Part shown: positions 7,750 through 21,502 of the stretch, piece by piece
How the letters are laid out: every line of letters starts with the position of its first letter
Position numbering within the stretch: the first letter of the stretch is position 1
Assembly: GCA_015657535.1 (NCBI GenBank)
Contig: JADHZB010000237.1
Span: forward strand, 1 to 21,502
DNA from: Nephromyces sp. MM_2019
Taxonomy: Eukaryota; Apicomplexa; Aconoidasida; Nephromycida
Direction of reading: 5' to 3'
DNA: 21,502 nt
Translations under genes and position numbers: made by a program
Notes under the pieces: model-generated
What the model saw: only the letters and a program-made list of their open reading frames with translations
What the model was told of the DNA's origin: nothing
The model's database searches: none

Positions 7750-10174
7750 CATACACACACACACCATATCAACATATATAATAAATCACATACACACACC
7801 CATTAGATCAATACATAGATATAAAAAGTATAAAATCACATACATACACAACCCATCAACTTAAATATATTATAAATCACTCCCTCACACACACACATAC
7901 ACACACACACACACCTAATAGTTTCATTAACTTTACGAAAGGCGGGAGCAGGTGCGTATTGTACTTCATCAAAAATTAAGAGTCCCCATTCTCTCCCTCT
8001 AATTTGTTGAAGGATACGTTCAGCAGCTACACTTCGTTTTCCACTAAATGCCATCATAGTGTATGTACTGACTAATACACCCGCTTCACACACATCCCAT
8101 AAATCAGATTTATAATCCGATGTAAGCTGTTTAACTAAATCAGGTTGTATACTAGTAAATTCTTCAAATTGTCGTTTCCATTGTTCTACAGCTACAGCAG
8201 ATGTTGTTAAAACCATAACAGATTTACGTATTGTACAGGCAGCGGTTATACCTGTTAATGTTTTACCTGCACCACACGGTAAAACAATTATACCAGAACG
8301 TGCTCTACCATTACTAAACATCTTCCTAAGCGCTCTTTCTTGATAATAACGAATTTTTGTAGTGCATTTTATAGTGCTATTTAGATTAGGATTACGTTTA
8401 TCTTTCCTAAAATCATATTCCATAACAAGTGGTCTTAACATACGTTCTAATGCTTCACGTTTAACTTCTTCTATTTGTTCTTGTAATACTTCAAATGCAT
8501 ATACTTGTTGCATGGGTGTTTGTGTATTCACTTCCGTATTGAGCGGTGTTGTTGTTGTTGTTGTTGTTGATGGTGATGATGTTGTTGTTGATGGTGGTGA
8601 TGATGTTGTTGTTTCTGTTGCTTTTGTTGTTGTTGTTTGATTTGAGGGAACTTGTGATGTTTCAATATGTATTGAACTTTCTTCTTTATCAGATGTTGTA
8701 AATCCTAATTGTGATGCATCTAATACAGGGATTGTTGTTGTTACATATTCATTTTGATTATCGAGTGTATGTACACGTGATGATGATTGCGTATTTGCGG
8801 AAGATTGTTTTGTTTCATCATTGTTTGAAAATATATTTAAAGTTGGTTTAGATGTACGTACACGTGATGTACGTATTATTTCATTACTCAATAAAAAATC
8901 TAATTCCTTTTTATCCGTTGCCTCCACCCAATACTTATTATCTCGTAACACCAATTTTACCTTACCAAATGCCTATATGTATGTATGTGTATGTGTGTGT
9001 GTGTGTGTGTATAGGGTAGATAGTTTGTGAGGAATTGGGGTAGGTGGGGATGGAATTGGGATGAGAGTGTGTGGAATTGGGATGAGAGTGTGTGGAAATG
9101 GAGGTGTGCGGGGGGGNGGGCGTGATTAAATATGAATTAATATGTATATGATGTATCTGTATAAAGTTTACAAGATAAATACTAAGTATTGATATGTATA
9201 TATATTGTGTAAAGTGGATTTTGGATGTGTAATAGTATGTAGTGAAATGGTGTACTTTCTTAGAAATTATTTGCATATGTGTATGTGTGTGTATGTGTGT
9301 ATATGTCATTAAACAAACCTGTGCATTTAACCTAATCGTTCGAACCAAATCTTCTGGGAGTTCATTCTTTGAAAACTTATTTAAATTGTCAAGTAATTCA
9401 TCATCCGATAAACCCACAGAAATTGCACCATATAATGAAAATACCGTAATCTATTTAAAATATACACACATATCCATATTGATCATACGCATTTATAGAT
9501 AGATATGTTGTAGAAATATATGTATATATATATGTTATATACACACCTATAGTATGTAAGAAGTGTAATTAATGATAGCTGAATGATAGGAGATATTTAA
9601 GTTGAATATATGAGGAACAAAGTATATGAGATTACTTATACCTATATAAAGTACACTCAGTAACATACATACAGAGAGGGTGTACACGAGTTGTTATAGA
9701 CTTGATACCTATCATACCCCTCAGCCCCCCTACATACAAACACCGCACCCCTACAAACACACACACCCTACACAAACCCACCTGAAATTCATGGATAAGT
9801 TCTGGACGGCAAATTGGTTCTGCAATGGTAACTAAGAAATCAGAGGCTTGTTTACTAACAGGAAGGAAGAGTTCAAGAAAGATCATCCCATCTGTACATA
9901 CCCACATTGGCCTATTGTTATGGTCTCCTTTTAATTTGAGGGCACTATGGTCACGATACCGCCTTGCCCGGGAACTGAGGGCATCCGCCGTTGCAGGCAG
10001 ATCAACGCTCCCTGAAAAACTGGCTACTTGGACAGAGGCTTTAGATTTAGTTTTGAGGGAGGATGTGTGTGAAGAGATGTCTCCAGAGGAATGTGTGTAA
10101 GAGGGTGTGGAGAAATCAGGTACTGTGGGAAGAGGAAGGGGAGGAGGACCTCCTATATTAATCTTCAGTGGCAT
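4587..10174 (-). CDS. XPB: XPB/ERCC3/SSL2 DNA helicase, TFIIH subunit (nine exons, complete)
   Basis: XPB is the 3'-to-5' ATPase/translocase of TFIIH that opens promoters and acts in nucleotide excision repair. Exons: 9782-10174, 9319-9450, 7915-8972, 7368-7488, 7170-7244, 6333-6658, 5768-5918, 5120-5348, 4587-4753. All introns are GT-AG and all phases join, giving 883 residues (human about 780). The N-terminal domain carries RPMWV...DGMIFLE...[10 protein letters not shown] Ser/Thr-rich linker lies near 280-326. Walker A is PCGAGKT (409-413), motif II is DEVQ (510-513, His in animals and yeast), and the RED motif is at 541-543. Motif VI QRLGR (707-711) spans the exon 6/7 join. The C-terminus ends HPLFRKF, as in other XPBs. 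For exon 6 I chose the acceptor at 6659-6660 over an AAG five codons downstream because it restores the family's spacing. An in-frame stop precedes the start Met, which could itself be part of an upstream acceptor (TAG). Confidence 0.96.
6110..6318 (-). repeat. G-rich minisatellite in XPB intron 6, quadruplex-prone on the sense strand
   Basis: About five copies of a unit near 42 bases, reading cccctctcttctttcccttc plus cctatacacacacac on the plus strand. On the XPB sense strand each unit carries GGGGAAGGGAAAG followed by another GGGG-like run, so any two adjacent units meet a four-run G-quadruplex pattern. It lies at the 5' end of the intron, close to the donor at 6332. Confidence 0.85.
6905..7140 (+). 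repeat. 38-base tandem array in XPB intron 5
   Basis: The hexamer atcagt recurs at 6905, 6943, 6981, 7019, 7057, 7095 and 7133, exactly 38 bases apart each time. Two unit versions occur: one with gtataggtttgtg and one with tatagatatgtatg. Their order is A B B A B A, then a diverged copy. The array lies wholly within intron 5 (6659-7169). Confidence 0.92.
7615..7920. repeat. (TA)n and (CA)n tracts in XPB intron 3
   Basis: Three alternating TA blocks (about 7,615-7,641, 7,655-7,690 and 7,717-7,746) are separated by CA-rich linkers containing aacccatcaacatat. The last CA tract forms the 5' splice donor of the intron (G|GTGTGTG on the sense strand at 7,914). The intron is 7489-7914. Confidence 0.85.
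9117..9117. other. Ambiguous base in a poly-G run
   Basis: The single N in the window lies inside a G run (six G, N, three G) in XPB intron 2 (8973-9318). It marks an unresolved homopolymer length and does not touch coding sequence. Confidence 0.95.
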
Positions 10175-14445: not shown

Positions 14446-16240
14446 TTAATTTCTCATTTTCTTTTGTTCCATAAGTCTTGAGTGACCTCTCATAAAATGG
14501 AATGAAAAATAATTAAATACGCATAACACCATCATCATTATACTTACATATAGATAGTTCTCGTTGAATGTTTCTTTGGTTAGTGGATCATATAAATATA
14601 CAGATAATAAAGAAACTACACCACCACACATTGATGCTACACCTACTAATTTTCCAAAGTGTAAATCTTCAAATCTATCCTTAATGAAGAAATACACCTG
14701 CGAAGTGTATATAGATACATATATAGTCATACATACACTTGCTGCATATTTAGTAGCAATACTAGGTATGTTGGCCAATATATAAGCTACAAAACCAAAG
14801 GTTGTGTTGATAAACATAACATATACAGGTCCGATAGAATCTACCAATTTACCATACACAATAGTTGGAGCAAAACTGATAGGGTTAATAATACCGTAAA
14901 ATGTGTTAACTTCTGTAGTAAGTAGTTGTTCACCACTTACAGTAAAGAAATTAAATATTAGGCAAGTTGTACAAAAATAGAAAGAAATTGCAATAAATCT
15001 ACTAGATGTAAATTGATCATAAGACTGAGCGAGATTCTTAGGTAATCCCTTTATGTCTTCCCACAACTTTGTTATACCAGTCTTTTGTGACTTGATGATA
15101 GGAGCAGAACCATCTAGTGTGTAATATTCCAATGGATAGAATGATCTTGTAGGCATGAAAAGAGCTGCATATAACCACATAATAGCTAATATAGCCATAT
15201 ATCCATAACAAATTTGCTGAAATGTTAAGTTATATCCTCTTTGTATAGAATCCATGATTGTAGGTACGGCAAAACTTGCAGAATTGGCTGCTCCTAATAT
15301 TGCAATAACAACACCATTATAGCCTGGGAAGAGATTGGAAGTTTGTAATGTAGGTAAAAAGCCTGTATCTGCTCCCAATCCAATCATTGCAAAACAAAAA
15401 ACATATGCGTTAAAATTCTCTCCAGCAAATGACAATAATAACCAAGCTGTAAAATTAATTGATTGACCCAGAACTGCGGTAAATTTAGGTCCAAAGTTGT
15501 CAATAAAAGTACCTGCCACTAACGACATTATATACTGACAAGGCATAGCAATTTGAAAAAGTCGTTGAACAGCTGTGTCTTGTTCTTCACAATCATACCG
15601 CCTATCGTCAATGAATGAGCCTTCAGGACATAGCCATCGATATGCACCTACACATACATTATATGAAGGATTAAGAGATGATATTTGTAATTAGAGAGAA
15701 TGTTAAGTATGTGCGGAATATTGTGTAGATTGTATGTGTATGGAGGAGATATGAAGGAAAAAATATAAGTTTACGGACTTGTATATATGTGTAAGCATAC
15801 AGAAGCTTTGTGTATGTATGTATATCTGTTTGGAAGTTGTGAAATCGAGTATAACAATATAGGTAAAAGTGTAAATTTGAGTTTATGTACGCATGCATCA
15901 AATTTAGCATACATGTGGGGTTAAACGTTATAAATATTTATATATGCTGTGCATGCAAAGTATTTTGAATCTCATAAACATAGTTACCATCTCTGAAAAG
16001 CATATTGGAAAAACCAGGCCAACCATAGTAAACACTCCCAGTGAAAGATACATAAATCGTGCAGCAAAGAAGTATTAAATATCTACTTTGATTAAAAGGT
16101 GTTTTCTGTCTAGCACATGGGTTATCGCTTTGTAAAAAATTAGGTGGAAAAAATTTGGACATCTTCTTGTTAGAAAGTTCAAAAGGGGTATTATAGCTTT
16201 TGGAGGAGCCAGTAGTAGCTGTTTCGTGGTCGGTTTGCAT
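14446..16240 (-). CDS. Major facilitator transporter, SLC43/ApiAT-like (two exons, complete)
   Basis: Exon 1 is 15988-16240 and exon 2 is 14446-15647. The 340-base intron (GTAACT...TGTAG) joins in phase 1 within ...LFRDG|AYRWLC..., giving 484 residues. The start is the first Met after an upstream in-frame stop. A soluble N-terminus of about 50 residues is followed by about 12 hydrophobic segments. GWPGFSNMLFRDGAY after the first helix, a first loop with C91 and C104, and the MFS motif-A-like DNFGPK (134-139) match the SLC43-like amino-acid transporters and the apicomplexan ApiAT group. The likely role is amino-acid or related solute transport in a membrane; the substrate cannot be read from the sequence. 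A GTAAGT near 14,544 could look like a donor, but reading through it completes the last membrane helix, so I treat exon 2 as uninterrupted. Confidence 0.88.
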
Positions 16241-17536
16241 TATGTAGTAAAATAATGAAGGGTAAAATTCTTCTATGGATGCTTAATGTTATATTTATAT
16301 ATTGTTTATTACGGGTAGTAAATAGGGTAGTAAATAGGGTAGTAAATAAACTGTTTTGTTGAATTATAGAAGACAGTAAAGTAAATATGTTATTCTTCCT
16401 GAGATGTTGGTGGAAGAAAAATAATTCTCTGAGTTTTTGTATTTACTATAAAATTATTTATAAAAGTATTATAATAAATTATCTGTTTTATTCTTTATTT
16501 TGATAATTAAATTTCTTGTTGTGACAAATAAAAACAAAAAAGTGAACAATTTCGAAAAAAGGGATTACCGGCTTTAGCTAAATTTTGTTTGGTTATTTTA
16601 TTGTCGTAATTAAAAAGTGGTTAATCAAGTCATTTTCAATTTTTGAATTTATGTTTATTATTGTTAAAAGAATATAAATTTTTATGTTAAGCAGTACAAT
16701 TATTTTCTTGTATAGTTATGGCTTAGCTAAGAATTATAATTATCGAATATCTAGAAAATTAATATGTGTAACTTGTGTAATTTATGTAGCTTTTGTATCT
16801 AGTTTTATTTTTATTTAAATTAGCATGTGTTAGTGCATTTATATATATATCTTATACAGAAGAAGTTGATATTTTCGATTAGAATAATTTCTACAAACTT
16901 TTAACTTTTAACAGAAAGTTTATGTTCTTATTTAAGGTATATATATATATATATATGTGTATATATATGTTAGGATTAGAGAGGGGGGAGGATAGAAAAA
17001 ATAGTAAGTAATATAAGTTGATAGATGCAAAAGTAATATTTTTTAGACGATTAGTTAAGTTCATTTAATTTACGTGCGTGTGTGATGAATGTTTAGTAAA
17101 TACACTTTGAGTTTGTGTATATATACTATATAGTTCTAATTTAATTTAATACATATTGTTTACTTGTTACATAATATATGCTTAAAGATGTGAATATATA
17201 GCTACCCTGGATATATATGCATGCATTCTTACTATATGTATGTATATATAATTATAAAATGTACATATATATATAAGGTACGTTTGCTAGGTTAATTTCT
17301 TGTGTGTAAACTATTCTTCATTCTACAATTTGTGGTTGTGTGCATATATATAATTTGTTTTAATTAGATTAAATTGTGCTATCAACTATAAATTATAATT
17401 TAGATGAACAAATGTGCAAAGTATTATCGTTAATTAAATTTATTTTTGGTTTTTTAGTCGAAAAGTTTTGCCAAGTGCAAAATAATATACTACACACACA
17501 CAAACACACGTGCGTATTGAGCACTTTTTGTCAATA
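16241..17536. other. AT-rich region upstream of the transporter, up to the bacterial relic
   Basis: No gene is visible. It should hold the transporter promoter. It contains a perfect 12-base triple repeat at 16,313-16,348, a (TA)n tract near 16,938-16,960, and many TATATA stretches. A short (AC)n tract at about 17,491-17,508 is the last host-style repeat before the bacterial sequence, so the left junction lies between about 17,510 and 17,565. Confidence 0.7.
16313..16348 (+). repeat. Perfect 12-base triple repeat upstream of the transporter
   Basis: The unit gggtagtaaata is repeated exactly at 16313-16324, 16325-16336 and 16337-16348, ending 73 bases before the first base of the transporter start codon. 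It is distinct from the surrounding TG and TA microsatellites. Confidence 0.95.
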
Positions 17537-17748
17537 CTATTTAAAATAAAAAATAAACATAAATTTCTTTTGCTCATTTTGCAAAAATTCGAAAATCTCC
17601 CCTTGTGCATTCGGCACTGCCCCAACCACTGGATTTGCCTGTAATACGAATCCTATAGAACCCTCATTGAAAAAAATTGAGTTTTTTTATCAAAAGATTC
17701 ATATACAAAATATTTCCCAAAATGTTCTCTTTTTTCCTGCGCTCTCAT
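17537..17748 (-). pseudogene. traC: traC fragment: N-terminus of conjugation assembly ATPase, truncated and frameshifted
   Basis: TraC is the VirB4-like ATPase that energises pilus assembly. The start codon (17,746-17,748) overlaps the stop of the dsbA-like gene as ATGA. The frame reads FVYESFDKKTQFF, then breaks at a run of seven A (17,670-17,676, plus strand); one base is missing relative to the continuing frame, NEGSIGFVLQANPVVGA...IFEFLQNEQ. That block matches the N-terminal region of TraC proteins. Similarity stops near 17,565 and the frame closes at 17,537. Only about 60 of the usual 800-plus residues remain, and no Walker motif is present. The break coincides with the return of host-like sequence, so the gene was cut by the insertion end or by later deletion. 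Confidence 0.75.
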
Positions 17749-18297
17749 TCAATATTTTCCAATAAAAATTTAAGTTGCTCATAATTGCCGTGAAAGAATT
17801 TACCATTCACAAGAATTTGAGGAGCTGCGTTTACCACTTCAGAATTTTGGGAACATGAAAGGAGAATCTTATTTTTCAGTTCTTCGGAAGAAAAACTCTC
17901 ATTCATTTGCTCAATAGTAATGCCATATTTTATACCAATTTCCATTAGCAATTTTATAATCTTTTTTGTAAAAAATCTCCTCTTTAGATATGATGGCTTG
18001 GAACACGGGTCCTTGAAACTCTGGTGCAGCTAGATGTAGCAAAACCAAACTATACAAATCCTTTATATGCACTGCATGTTCTCGAAACACAAAATGCACA
18101 CTGCCAGTATCTATGAAATCTTTTTTAAGTGGCAAAAAAATTTGCTCAAATGAAAGGCGGCAACCATAACAAGTAAAACCATAGTGATATTCTATTTTTA
18201 CCCGAGAAGTCGGATTCCCAAGACTTATAGGAGCTCCATAAACTGATTGAAATGTAAAAAATATATTAAGAAAAATTAATAAAAATTTAATTTTCAT
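17745..18297 (-). pseudogene. DsbA-like thiol oxidoreductase, one frameshift
   Basis: A periplasmic thioredoxin-fold protein that would form or shuffle disulfides in pilus and secretion proteins. Residues 1-21 are a signal peptide ending VYGA. The CxxC active site is FTCYGC near residues 38-43, the helical insert carries FREHAV, and the family's cis-proline region appears as APQILVNGKF in the downstream frame. The total length (553 bases, one more than 184 codons) fits a single inserted base near 17,962-17,975, where runs of six T and six A lie close together. The gene starts inside the traV stop (ATGA, 18,294-18,297) and ends inside the traC start. A Dsb gene between traV and traC is typical of SXT-like conjugation operons. 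Confidence 0.82.
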
Positions 18298-18452
18298 ATT
18301 TCTCCTCTATCTACCATATCGTTGATCTCTTTCAAAGATTTGCAGCTTTGCCCATCTTGGGTTGGACATTTATAATCACTCTTGTACGGCCAAAATACAG
18401 TACAAGAACTTGTAGATGACAGTAAAATGAGAAGAAAAAAAATGTTTTTCAT
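18294..18452 (-). CDS. traV: TraV-like outer-membrane lipoprotein, 52 residues, intact frame
   Basis: TraV is the lipoprotein of the outer-membrane core (with TraK and TraB). The frame encodes a hydrophobic signal, a lipobox-type Cys at residue 17 (SSTSSC), then a Cys-containing segment with FWPYKSDYKCP, CKSLKEINDMVD and the ending RGEI. The two later cysteines and the CKSL...MVD pattern are those of the conserved N-terminal part of TraV. At 52 residues it is much shorter than the F-plasmid protein (about 170), but both ends are fixed by ATGA overlaps with traB and the dsbA-like gene, so this short form looks native. It is one of two undamaged genes in the relic. Being only about 160 bases, its intactness may be chance. 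Confidence 0.75.
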   Translation of the reverse strand: MKNIFFLLILLSSTSSCTVFWPYKSDYKCPTQDGQSCKSLKEINDMVDRGEI

Positions 18453-19658
18453 TGGTCCAGCCCTTCTGTATTTATTTTAACAATGGATGATTCTTGTTTT
18501 TCTTCTTGTGATCTTATTTTTTTTACAGTAGGAGCTACATCTTCTTTAAGAAAAACACTGCTCTTGAAAAGTATTTGTACTTTCGCACCAGCATCAACTA
18601 TTATTACAGGGCTTAATTGCTCTGCTCTATCAATCGAATATTTAGCTAATCGATCCAGAGCATTTGAAACTCCGTCTGCTGCACCCACCTTTAGCGCATC
18701 TTTTACTTCTAGGCCATTTGTATGAATCGCTAGTGGAGAAGTGGGTACAACAGCATTCATAGTCTGCTGCTTTAAAAATTAGACATTCCTCCAAGCAAAC
18801 CATTGACTAAAGACATCTGAACCATTGGACCAGCTCTATCTATAACTTTTCCTCTTATGCCTACTCTACCATCTCCTCCAATCACACAACCCTCTATTTT
18901 CTTCTCTATTATTTGTCCATCTTTGTTTTTGAGGCTTAAGCTATCTAATCTCCACTCTGCTCTCTCTGAAGAAATATTTCCAGTACAAGATCCTAGCACT
19001 ATAGCGTCTACTACCTGCTCTGTGTTAAGGTTTCTAGAAAATTTTGCAAAGTCTGTAAGGCGTAGCATAACTGGTTAGGATCTCCTTTCACTGTTGTGCC
19101 AGTAGAGACATCTAATCCAGTCATGAAAACTGCATCTGCAAATGCACCACTTGTTATATAGCGCTCTTCATTTGGAGCAACATAACTTGTGTTAGCTGTA
19201 TGTATTCTCAATAATCTTCTTGTAACAACAGGAATAATGGATATACTGTTTTTATTGTTCGTAGCGTTATTTGCAAATTGTAATTCTTGCTGCGCTCTCA
19301 CTATCCTTTCATTCTCAAGCTCTTGAGCCAACTCTTGGAGTTTTGCCTCAAAGAGCTTTTGCTGCTCTTTTAGAGCAGCTTGAAATTCTGTCAATTTTTC
19401 ATCTTTGTTCTTTGTCACCATAGTTGTAACGTTGTTGGCCCAAGTGTCTCTAGGATCTACAACTTTTGCTATTCCAGTTATTTCTTCTTCTTTCTTGGTT
19501 TGGGTTATTTTTACTTCGTTTGTAATTTTTTCCTCTTCTTTTGCTCTTTGAGCAAAAAGCAAAAGACAAGCAAACACAACCATAGACATTGTTATCAAAA
19601 TTATTATTTTGGTAATTTTGTTTTGAGTTTGAAATTTTTGCAAAAAACTCTTCATCAT
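18449..19658 (-). pseudogene. traB: traB, VirB10-like envelope-spanning scaffold, two frameshifts
   Basis: TraB spans the inner membrane and periplasm to the outer-membrane core. The first frame (from 19,658) has a membrane anchor at about residues 18-40, a Glu/Lys/Gln-rich coiled coil (about 88-130), and the TrbI/VirB10-type core start ITSGAFADAVFMTGLDVSTG. The frame breaks near 19,071-19,080 (one base lost at AACC). It continues as VMLRLTDFAKF...ERAEWR...GCVIGGDGRVGIRGKV, classic TraB sequence, to a second break at a T5 run (18,774-18,778, one T lost). The last part runs from KQQTMNAVV to a TGA that overlaps the traV start. With both bases restored the length would be 403 residues, near the usual size. 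It begins directly after the pilin-like stop codon. Confidence 0.92.
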
Positions 19659-19949
19659 CTATGCAAGTTTCATATCCCCCTCGATCCAACCAAGATAAAG
19701 GCTCAATATGAGCCTAATTGCTACTATTGCTCCAGTGAGCTTTAGATTTCCTTTAACTGCTGCCCATACAGATCCGAGAATCGTTGCTCCAGTAAGTCCT
19801 ATTTTTTTTAAGTAATCATTACTAAATTTTTGTATTTGATCCATTTGATTTTGCAGGTTTGCGTTGCCTGAAGCAAAAACATCATCCAAAAAAACAAAAA
19901 TTGTAAGTATATACTGGATTTGTTTAGTAAAATTTTTCTTATTCATCAT
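19659..19949 (-). CDS. Small pilin-like membrane protein, 96 residues, intact frame
   Basis: The protein has an N-terminal hydrophobic signal (YILTIFVFLDDVFAS, about residues 13-27), a short polar stretch, then two hydrophobic segments (about 50-66 and 70-90) separated by the small basic loop KGNLK. This size and two-helix layout fit conjugative pilins of the TraA/VirB2 type. It sits three bases after the traK stop and ends immediately before the traB start codon, so it belongs to the operon. In the F plasmid the pilin gene precedes traL; a position between traK and traB is unusual. It could be an unrelated small inner-membrane protein. The frame is undamaged. Confidence 0.55.
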   Translation of the reverse strand: MMNKKNFTKQIQYILTIFVFLDDVFASGNANLQNQMDQIQKFSNDYLKKIGLTGATILGSVWAAVKGNLKLTGAIVAIRLILSLYLGWIEGDMKLA

Positions 19950-19952
19950 TTT

Positions 19953-20320
19953 TTACCTCACTTTTTTTTGTAAAAAATTGCCACTGAAAATACGCACCAC
20001 TTCTGGTTTTTTATCTGTAAATGATACAGATAAATCTTGTACTGTTTTTTATCAGTAATAAAACTTATAAATAAAGTCTCTTTTGTATATGATTTAGGAA
20101 CAATGATTAGTTGTCCCAAACTGTTTAATTCTATATCAACCACCCCTTCTGGAAATACAATTAAATCCACAATTTTCTCATTTGTTACGAAAATTCTTGT
20201 AAACCCAGTTTTGGAAATTTTTAATGTCATAATCATTTCTTCATTTCCTTGGTATCCAATAGCGAAAATATTTCCAAAAGAAAAAACAACGCTCAAAAAA
20301 AATATACTAAACACTCTCAT
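19953..20320 (-). pseudogene. traK: traK-like secretin-domain protein, one frameshift
   Basis: TraK forms the outer-membrane core with TraB and TraV. The frame opens with a signal peptide (residues 1-21, ending FAIG) and a beta-rich region with RIFVTNEKIVDLIVFPEGVV...ELNSLGQLIIVPKS, the hallmark of the TraK/secretin N-terminal domain. The frame breaks near 20,038-20,042 (one base lost at CAGTAC). The alternative frame gives a natural end, FSGNFLQKKVR, and a TAA three bases before the pilin-like gene. The restored length would be about 122 residues, roughly half of F TraK, so the gene may have been short before it decayed. Its start overlaps the end of traE by 14 bases. Confidence 0.78.
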
Positions 20321-20876
20321 TGGTAAGATCTTTTACGTTGGACAGAATTATCAGGCTGCCTCGAATTACTTTGTAAGTAACAAGGCACACCCTTTCTTGC
20401 GCTACTTTATTTTATCTGGAGAATCCCCAAACCAGTAATGCACGGTGCCGTTAATCTTTACTTGTCTGTTATTCACTGGAACAAAGTCTTTAATGAAAAA
20501 AACTGAAGTGACTCGATTACTTTTTATGAAATAGATTTGTTCCTTTAAAAATTTTGCTAAGTCTTCGGAACGAAGATCACAAATGGATCGCAAATTGTTC
20601 ATTTGAGAATCTACTTCTCCGTAAGAAACGGTTAGTAATTCGTGCATTATAGATTTACACCACTCAAACAAATAGCTTTGATAGAAAGCTTAGTCAGAAA
20701 TCTTTAGTTGTTTTTCTGTATTTATTGCCGGAATCAAAACAAAAATTTCTTCTTTTGAAAAGGCCTTTTATTCCTAGCAACAAACAAAGAACAGACAAAA
20801 CAACTAATACAATTAAAAGTGTTTTGTTCGCGCTTGCAACAATGCTCAAAGAAGCATTCTTGTATAAATGTTTCAT
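20307..20876 (-). pseudogene. traE: traE, two frameshifts and an in-frame stop
   Basis: TraE is a VirB8-like inner-membrane assembly protein. The first frame has the single N-terminal membrane helix (residues about 16-38, LLIVLVVLSVLCLLLGI). It breaks at an A4 run (20,753-20,756 on the plus strand as T4) and continues as EEIFVLIPAIN...QLKISD, which hits a TAA at 20,690-20,692. It then resumes in the same frame with FEWCKSIMHELL...RVTSVFFIKDFV...GTVHYWFGDS, typical TraE. A second break at an A4 run (20,410-20,413) leads to VAQERVCLVTYKV and a stop inside traK. The span is exactly 190 codons, so the two indels compensate and the size matches F TraE (188). The start overlaps the traL stop (ATGA). 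Confidence 0.88.
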
Positions 20877-21182
20877 CTTACAACTCTTTTTTTGTATAAA
20901 GTATTTGGTAATGTCGAAGGTCTTAACAAAATTTTTTTGGCGATAAAAAAACTTTTCAAGCTAAAAGTTTTAGAAAAATGTTTTATTTTTTTTTAAAAAT
21001 AGCAAAAAAAGAAGCTGCCTAAAAATAGAACAAAGCCCCAACTTTATATGTCCTGCGTTTAAAACCCAAAAACCTAAAGATATTGAAGATAGCATCACCA
21101 ACCACTCATCTATCGTAAATCCCAAATATTGTATTGGTTTGGACCAAGACCAATACAAATACTGCATTTTTTCTTTTTGCAT
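20873..21182 (-). pseudogene. traL: traL, one frameshift in a nine-base A run
   Basis: TraL is a small inner-membrane pilus-assembly protein. The frame has an N-terminal WSKPIQYLGFTIDEW segment, as in TraL (aromatic, then DE), followed by two hydrophobic stretches (about residues 28-40 and 46-60). It runs into a run of nine A (plus-strand T9, 20,986-20,994), where one extra base shifts the frame. The shifted frame continues as KHFSKTFSLKSFF to a TGA overlapping the traE start as ATGA. The span (310 bases) is one base longer than 103 codons, consistent with a single insertion. The start at 21,182 lies about 28 bases from the promoter's -10 box. No clear Shine-Dalgarno precedes it, and a Met five codons downstream is possible. 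Confidence 0.8.
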
Positions 21183-21209
21183 TCGCGTCTTATCAAAAAA
21201 TAAAAAATA

Positions 21210-21238
21210 ATAATATTCAATTTGTAAATTTTTGTCAA
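21210..21238 (-). promoter_or_regulatory. Sigma-70 promoter of the tra operon
   Basis: On the minus strand a perfect -35 box TTGACA (21,233-21,238) is followed by exactly 17 bases and TATTAT (21,210-21,215), one mismatch from TATAAT. The expected start of transcription is near 21,203, about 20 bases before the traL start codon. It shows that the transferred DNA includes the true start of the operon. In a eukaryotic nucleus it would not function as such. Confidence 0.8.
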
Positions 21239-21502
21239 CAGTTATATTAATCTTTATTTATCTAAATTTTAATATACAATTTTGTATGATATATATATAT
21301 ATTATTATGTGTGAAAATATACTTTATTTTAAAATTATTTATATATATATGTATAACATATTGTATACATATGAGAATGATTTAAAGATATATGTTTTGT
21401 ATATATATAAGGTGCAATTACATATGAACTTTATATATTTAATTTGTCTAAGTGTGTAAATATGATGATGCATATATTATATTTTTAAATATTTACATAT
21501 AT
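21239..21502. other. Host-like AT-rich sequence after the bacterial relic
   Basis: No gene. From about 21,289 the sequence is again (TA)n with tgtgtg stretches, as in the rest of the window. The right junction therefore lies between the promoter's -35 box (21,238) and about 21,288. Confidence 0.65.

What the first reader, a model, noticed from the sequence alone, without database searches (positions are those of the whole stretch)
17540..21240. Bacterial conjugation operon embedded in a protist nuclear contig
A 3.7 kb run of F-type T4SS genes (traL, E, K, pilin-like, B, V, dsbA-like, traC start) is flanked on both sides by intron-bearing, microsatellite-rich eukaryotic DNA. Rickettsiales commonly carry such systems, and Rickettsiales-like endosymbionts are known in apicomplexan relatives such as Cardiosporidium/Nephromyces. 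Transfer from an endosymbiont to the nucleus fits best, and a secretion operon as cargo is unusual.
Basis: partly seen in the sequence, partly recalled or inferred. Interest (0 to 1): 0.9.

Follow-up and report, generated by a model that had tools for sequence, protein, structure and literature searches.

The report
Broken bacterial operon in protist DNA
A 3.6-kilobase fragment of a bacterial DNA-transfer (conjugation) operon, with several of its genes broken, sits near the end of a contig that otherwise carries genes of a likely apicomplexan protist; it was probably inserted into the protist's nuclear DNA from a bacterial symbiont and is predicted to do nothing there but decay.

Summary
The genes are real: positions 17,573-21,173 (minus strand) match F-type conjugation genes in the order traL, traE, traK, an unassigned pilin-shaped frame, traB, traV-like, dsbA-like, traC. 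But it is a damaged fragment. traB runs through three reading frames, traC homology stops at residue 87 of 818, and traL, traE, traK and dsbA look shifted or shortened. The window is one whole contig of a 48-Mb eukaryote assembly. The left flank is host DNA (ERO1, XPB, an intron-bearing apicomplexan-type transporter). The right flank is only about 260 bp, yet host-like: TA runs, partial matches to four other host contigs, and a composition score reached by 0 of 232 bacterial windows. The insert occurs once in the assembly; TraU, VirB4 and DnaA are not found. Best reading: symbiont DNA inserted in the nucleus and decaying, as known for Wolbachia and rickettsial DNA in other hosts. A Rickettsiales source is not shown: TraB groups with two unnamed metagenomic proteins (100/100), apart from the two Rickettsiales and two Chlamydiae sampled. 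The host is probably Nephromyces (inferred). No reads were at hand and 16S rRNA could not be searched, so an assembly chimera remains possible.

The parts
17573..17740 (-). traC fragment, N-terminal end only
   Evidence: 17,686-17,576 matches Protochlamydia TraC residues 51-87 of 818 (E 2e-5, custom set); the part before it lies in another frame (read by eye)
17745..18297 (-). dsbA-like (thioredoxin fold) gene, frameshifted
   Evidence: Pfam Thioredoxin_4 E 3.1e-9; plasmid matches Simkania E 1e-4, Bosea 3e-4, Protochlamydia 2e-3; 3' part in another frame read by eye, without a BLAST match
18297..18464 (-). short traV-like lipoprotein gene
   Evidence: Matches Megaera 110-aa protein (E 1e-5) and a Protochlamydia protein (E 5e-5) in a custom set
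18449..19658 (-). traB in three pieces, two frameshifts (near 19,060-19,070 and near 18,775)
   Evidence: contiguous matches to P0012 in three frames; NCBIfam TraB; protein search
19659..19949 (-). open frame of 96 aa, pilin-like in shape only
   Evidence: no significant family match
19961..20320 (-). traK, 5' part only
   Evidence: TIGR02756 E 0.0044; reference TraK proteins are 230-271 aa, matches here end near residue 131 and are weak
20405..20880 (-). traE, likely frameshifted with an in-frame stop
   Evidence: Pfam TraE E 8.4e-5, TIGR02761 E 7.4e-6 for 20,402-20,671; upstream part in another frame (weak)
20973..21187 (-). traL, likely frameshifted near its 3' end
   Evidence: 21,173-21,015 matches Protochlamydia TraL residues 2-59 of 96 (E 2e-4, custom set)
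17525..17572 (.). left junction zone; one copy of TTTTTGTCAA at 17,525
   Evidence: repeat not beyond chance
21188..21250 (.). right junction zone; other copy of TTTTTGTCAA at 21,229
21251..21502 (.). right flank, host-like AT-rich DNA up to the contig end
   Evidence: Composition and dinucleotide runs; partial matches to four other host contigs; contig end
14491..16243 (-). host MFS transporter gene, two exons, 1.3 kb from the insert

Best explanation
It is a broken 3.6-kb piece of a bacterial F-type conjugation operon that was likely inserted into intergenic nuclear DNA of a likely apicomplexan protist, probably from a bacterium living in its cells. Shown: gene content and order, the three frames of traB, the end of homology inside traC, host genes on the left, host-like DNA on the right, a single copy in the assembly, and no match to TraU, VirB4 or DnaA elsewhere in it. 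Inferred: a fragment of symbiont chromosome or plasmid reached the nucleus and was joined into a double-strand break, as organelle and Wolbachia DNA are (recalled mechanism); without selection it then collected indels and stops. It is predicted to make no pilus and to secrete nothing: it would be a fossil of a symbiont that carried a conjugation system.
For: F-type genes in operon order. TraB in three frames and traC stopping at residue 87 of 818; three residues kept in P0011 and P0012 are changed in the middle TraB piece. Host genes on the same contig. Right flank scores 0.137 for host: 0 of 232 windows of four bacterial loci and 26 of 260 windows of 12 host loci reach it; 35 of 262 bp of dinucleotide runs against 0 of 3,640 in the insert and 0 of 58,761 in the bacterial loci. 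Right-flank DNA matches four other host contigs at 70-77% over 98-146 bp. One copy in the assembly; no TraU, VirB4 or DnaA C-terminal domain.
Against: No reads were mapped. The right flank is only about 260 bp and carries no gene. Host windows reach the right-flank score in only 26 of 260 cases, and the bacterial controls are gene-rich and from other bacteria. 16S rRNA in the assembly could not be searched. The TraC family search did not find even the window's own fragment, so short bacterial pieces elsewhere may be missed. No near-identical bacterial source was found. The decay may predate the transfer.
Confidence: 0.72

Rival explanations
1. Assembly chimera: the end of a co-sequenced endosymbiont contig, carrying an already decaying conjugation operon, was wrongly joined to a host contig.
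For: The insert lies at a contig end; bacteria are known in this host group (PMC7737231, passages); decayed tra genes are common in Rickettsiales (recalled). The published Nephromyces data joined PacBio and Illumina contigs (PMC6320678, passages), if this is that assembly.
Against: Two joins would be needed if the right flank is host DNA, as searches suggest. VirB4, DnaA and TraU are absent from the assembly. No N lies in the insert or near either edge (only N at 9117).
Confidence: 0.16
2. A recent insertion whose genes were intact, the frameshifts being sequencing or polishing errors.
For: Long-read data may underlie the assembly (inferred host); indel errors of that kind give frameshifts without loss of sequence, as seen in traB.
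Against: Host matches of 1,374, 1,200 and 1,161 bp of one gene family run without a stop (biased, since one match cannot cross a frameshift, and 3 of 17 matches there do contain stops). Conserved residues are changed too. traC homology ends at the junction.
Confidence: 0.07
3. Interdomain conjugation: the symbiont's own conjugation machine carried its element into the protist nucleus.
For: The cargo is part of a conjugation machine.
Against: No oriT, relaxase or element end was identified, and passive capture explains the same scar.
Confidence: 0.04

Closest known systems
Rickettsial DNA in the nuclear genome of Volvox carteri (PMC4324946; passages)
   Same: A contiguous stretch of bacterial genes, about 9 kb, in a protist nuclear genome; described there as possibly non-functional
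   Different: The cargo there is 16S rRNA, murB, ddlB and a piece of ftsQ; donor kin are known and nuclear copy number was tested by PCR
Nuclear Wolbachia insertions in animals (PMC3998919, PMC5541319; listing with start of abstract)
   Same: Endosymbiont DNA in host chromosomes; the abstract of PMC5541319 calls most transferred genes neutrally evolving fossils
   Different: Donor genus known and the hosts are animals; here the donor is unknown and the host is a protist
Rickettsial inserts in the Haplopteris fern mitogenome (PMC10027690; passages)
   Same: Variably degenerated bacterial genes inserted in a eukaryote genome, including parts of a conjugation/secretion system (VirB8/B9)
   Different: Organelle genome, P-type genes, confirmed by PCR and read coverage
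Conjugation modules of Protochlamydia naegleriophila pPNK and Simkania negevensis pSn
   Same: traE-K-B, a thioredoxin-domain gene and a small protein gene before traC (traL annotated in pPNK); best DsbA-like plasmid match is Simkania
   Different: Annotated as complete genes in bacteria; TraB pieces only 38-44% identical to pPNK; thioredoxin precedes the small protein gene there, whereas here the traV-like gene comes first; no extra frame between traK and traB

Membership tests
F-type (MPF-F) conjugation operon | traL, traE, traK, traB, traV, traC in this order | tested here: met
   Homology and order; TraK and TraL support is weak
F-type (MPF-F) conjugation operon | Intact reading frames and the rest of the machine (traW, traU, traN, traH, traG) | tested here: not met
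   traB in three frames, traC cut; TraU absent from the assembly; traW, traN, traH, traG not searched one by one
Nuclear insertion of symbiont DNA (nuwt-like) | Bacterial DNA joined to host DNA on both sides | tested here: inconclusive
   Left: host genes on the contig. Right: about 260 bp of host-like DNA; no reads
Nuclear insertion of symbiont DNA (nuwt-like) | Fragmentary, degenerating genes | tested here: met
Nuclear insertion of symbiont DNA (nuwt-like) | An identifiable symbiont donor | tested here: not met
   No close bacterial copy
Rickettsiales (RAGE-like) tra genes | TraB groups with Rickettsiales | tested here: not met
   Groups with P0011 and P0012 (100/100), apart from Megaera and Bandiella; only two named Rickettsiales rows, deep forks weak and long branches flagged.
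Nephromyces as host | Host genes closest to nephromycids; uricase present | tested here: inconclusive
   Transporter best hits Cardiosporidium 46% and 43%; not Cardiosporidium itself (best long match 47%, best short 61%); uricase matches on three contigs. 18S rRNA was not searched

The most novel reading that the evidence does not exclude
The symbiont's own conjugation machine delivered the DNA: an F-type element entered the protist nucleus by interdomain conjugation and left the genes of the transfer machine itself as the scar.
Probability: 0.04. Interest if true: 0.85.

Novelty: new member of a known kind. Interest (0 to 1): 0.45.

Why it matters
If the junctions hold, this is a fossil of a conjugation-bearing bacterium in the cells of an apicomplexan lineage, and direct evidence that symbiont DNA reaches and stays in such nuclei, which bears on how gene transfer from symbionts begins. 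Four searches of the held open-licence papers listed no title on F-type tra genes in an apicomplexan nuclear genome; I saw listings and the starts of abstracts, and passages of two of the papers listed.

Tried and rejected
Donor search. The TraB C-terminal piece alone in genome contigs gave none. With a Protochlamydia partner it gave two loci of one gammaproteobacterial MAG at 48-49% over about 50 residues. Viral contigs gave none for A3, P0011 or P0012. The DsbA piece found none in the protein database. The TraE piece (E <= 0.1) and the middle TraB piece (E <= 2e-5) found none in plasmids; the TraB C-terminal piece found 975 plasmid records at E <= 2e-5, among them enteric F plasmids (E 2e-8) slightly ahead of Protochlamydia (6e-8). 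Of the plasmid hits of P0011, Candidatus Megaera is listed first by coverage, but the best listed E-value is a betaproteobacterium; for P0012 the best listed is the same betaproteobacterium, with one Rickettsiales record among 15 rows.

Host as Cardiosporidium cionae: rejected by 47% identity of the best long match and by other assembly figures (57 Mb, 2,213 contigs; PMC7737231 passages).

Target-site duplication: a 10-bp repeat at 17,525 and 21,229 was reached by 73 of 2,000 mononucleotide shuffles of 50-bp stretches chosen after the repeat was seen, so it is inconclusive. A 14-bp A/T-only repeat at 17,543 and 21,197 was set aside as low complexity; its order clashes with the first.

A first composition classifier separated host from bacteria poorly by sign: 9 to 20 of 20 windows (and 19 of 40) for five held-out host loci, 13 of 64 to 29 of 49 bacterial windows scored host-like. 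A second run with control counts was used for the right flank only; of 14 host stretches fetched, the two masked ones (L014, L019) were dropped.

PHROGs hits to TraB piece 1 (E 0.0027) and NCBIfam hits to OppC, MrdA and RNase RNM were judged spurious.

Full report
What is there. The window is one complete contig (C114, 21,502 bp) of an assembly of 48,283,399 bases in 1,127 contigs. Its first 17.5 kb carry eukaryotic genes: an ERO1 exon (Pfam E 2.2e-11), an XPB/Rad25 helicase exon (TIGR00603 E 8.3e-86) and an MFS transporter with exons at 14,491-15,651 and 15,962-16,243, in DNA rich in tandem repeats (58 rows in the whole window). From about 17,573 to 21,173, on the minus strand, lie parts of an F-type conjugation operon in the order traL, traE, traK, a 96-aa unassigned open frame, traB, a small traV-like gene, a dsbA-like gene and the start of traC. 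About 260 bp of AT-rich DNA follow, and the contig ends.

It is broken. TraB matches the metagenomic protein P0012 continuously (residues 32-221, 217-316, 316-419), but the three parts lie in three reading frames, so there are at least two frameshifts. TraC homology stops at residue 87 of 818. TraL matches residues 2-59 of 96 in one frame, and TraE and TraK are partial with weak matches in a second frame. For the dsbA-like gene and the first part of traC the second frame was read by eye only. In the middle TraB piece a cysteine, a tryptophan and a glutamate kept in both P0011 and P0012 are changed. By contrast, matches of 1,374 and 1,200 bp in related host genes and 1,161 bp in this contig's transporter contain no stop; 3 of the 17 matches in that search do contain stops, and one match cannot cross a frameshift, so this control is biased. 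The damage is more likely mutation than sequencing error. Whether it came before or after the transfer is unknown.

Is it in the host? The insert occurs once in the assembly. TraU, VirB4 and the DnaA C-terminal domain have no match there, while 1, 1 and 10 of the 14 control genomes ring. TraC_F_IV has none either, but that search missed the window's own fragment, so it says little about short pieces. PF03743 (TraB) rings only in this contig. The assembly thus does not look loaded with whole bacterial genomes, but 16S rRNA could not be tested (nine unanswered calls, the last). The last 250 bp score 0.137 on a fourth-order host-versus-bacterium composition test; 0 of 232 windows from four bacterial loci and 26 of 260 from 12 host loci reach that. 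The right flank has 35 of 262 bp in dinucleotide runs, against 0 of 3,640 in the insert and 0 of 58,761 in the bacterial loci. It matches four other host contigs at 70-77% over 98-146 bp. The left flank has no second copy in the assembly, only short repeat matches. These points favour insertion over chimera; reads would decide.

Where from? In a TraB tree of 38 rows the window joins P0011 and P0012 at 100/100 and stands apart from the Protochlamydia, Simkania, Megaera, Bandiella, F-plasmid and other rows; deep forks are weak and long branches are flagged. The DsbA-like piece matches 7 plasmid records: Simkania E 1e-4, Bosea 3e-4, Protochlamydia 2e-3 and four Azospirillum. pPNK holds the same set of genes apart from the extra frame between traK and traB, but with the thioredoxin gene and the small protein gene in the other order. 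An intracellular bacterium is a fair guess; its order is open.

Which host? Of 10 proteins found with the transporter, the best two are Cardiosporidium cionae (46% and 43%); the other named ones are from Neospora, Toxoplasma and Eimeria. The Cardiosporidium protein matches this contig at 47% and nothing in the assembly above 61%, so the assembly is not C. cionae. Uricase matches lie on three contigs. PMC6320678 (passages) reports purine degradation genes on Nephromyces contigs and a Nephromyces assembly of 1,176 contigs over 5 kb, averaging 36 kb. Nephromyces is the likeliest host, by inference.

How it works. The best reading is that it does not: symbiont DNA was joined into intergenic DNA 1.3 kb upstream of a transporter gene and decayed. 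The 10-bp direct repeat near the edges is inconclusive. Known parallels are nuclear Wolbachia insertions (starts of abstracts), rickettsial DNA in Volvox (passages) and in a fern mitogenome, with VirB8/B9 (passages). It is a new member of that kind, with F-type conjugation genes as unusual cargo.

Noticed in passing
window 9117: A single N, the only one in the window, inside host DNA; perhaps a merge point of two assemblies.
   Followed up: no
window 16313-16348: Three perfect copies of a 12-bp unit just upstream of the transporter's first exon.
   Followed up: no
G000 contigs C548, C1090, C1018: Uricase matches on three contigs of the host assembly: gene copies, or several strains in one sample.
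   Followed up: partly
L052, L053 (genome behind L038): TraB-like matches with TGA stops inside (2 and 1) in a gammaproteobacterial MAG, although the TraB frame of L038 is open.
   Followed up: no
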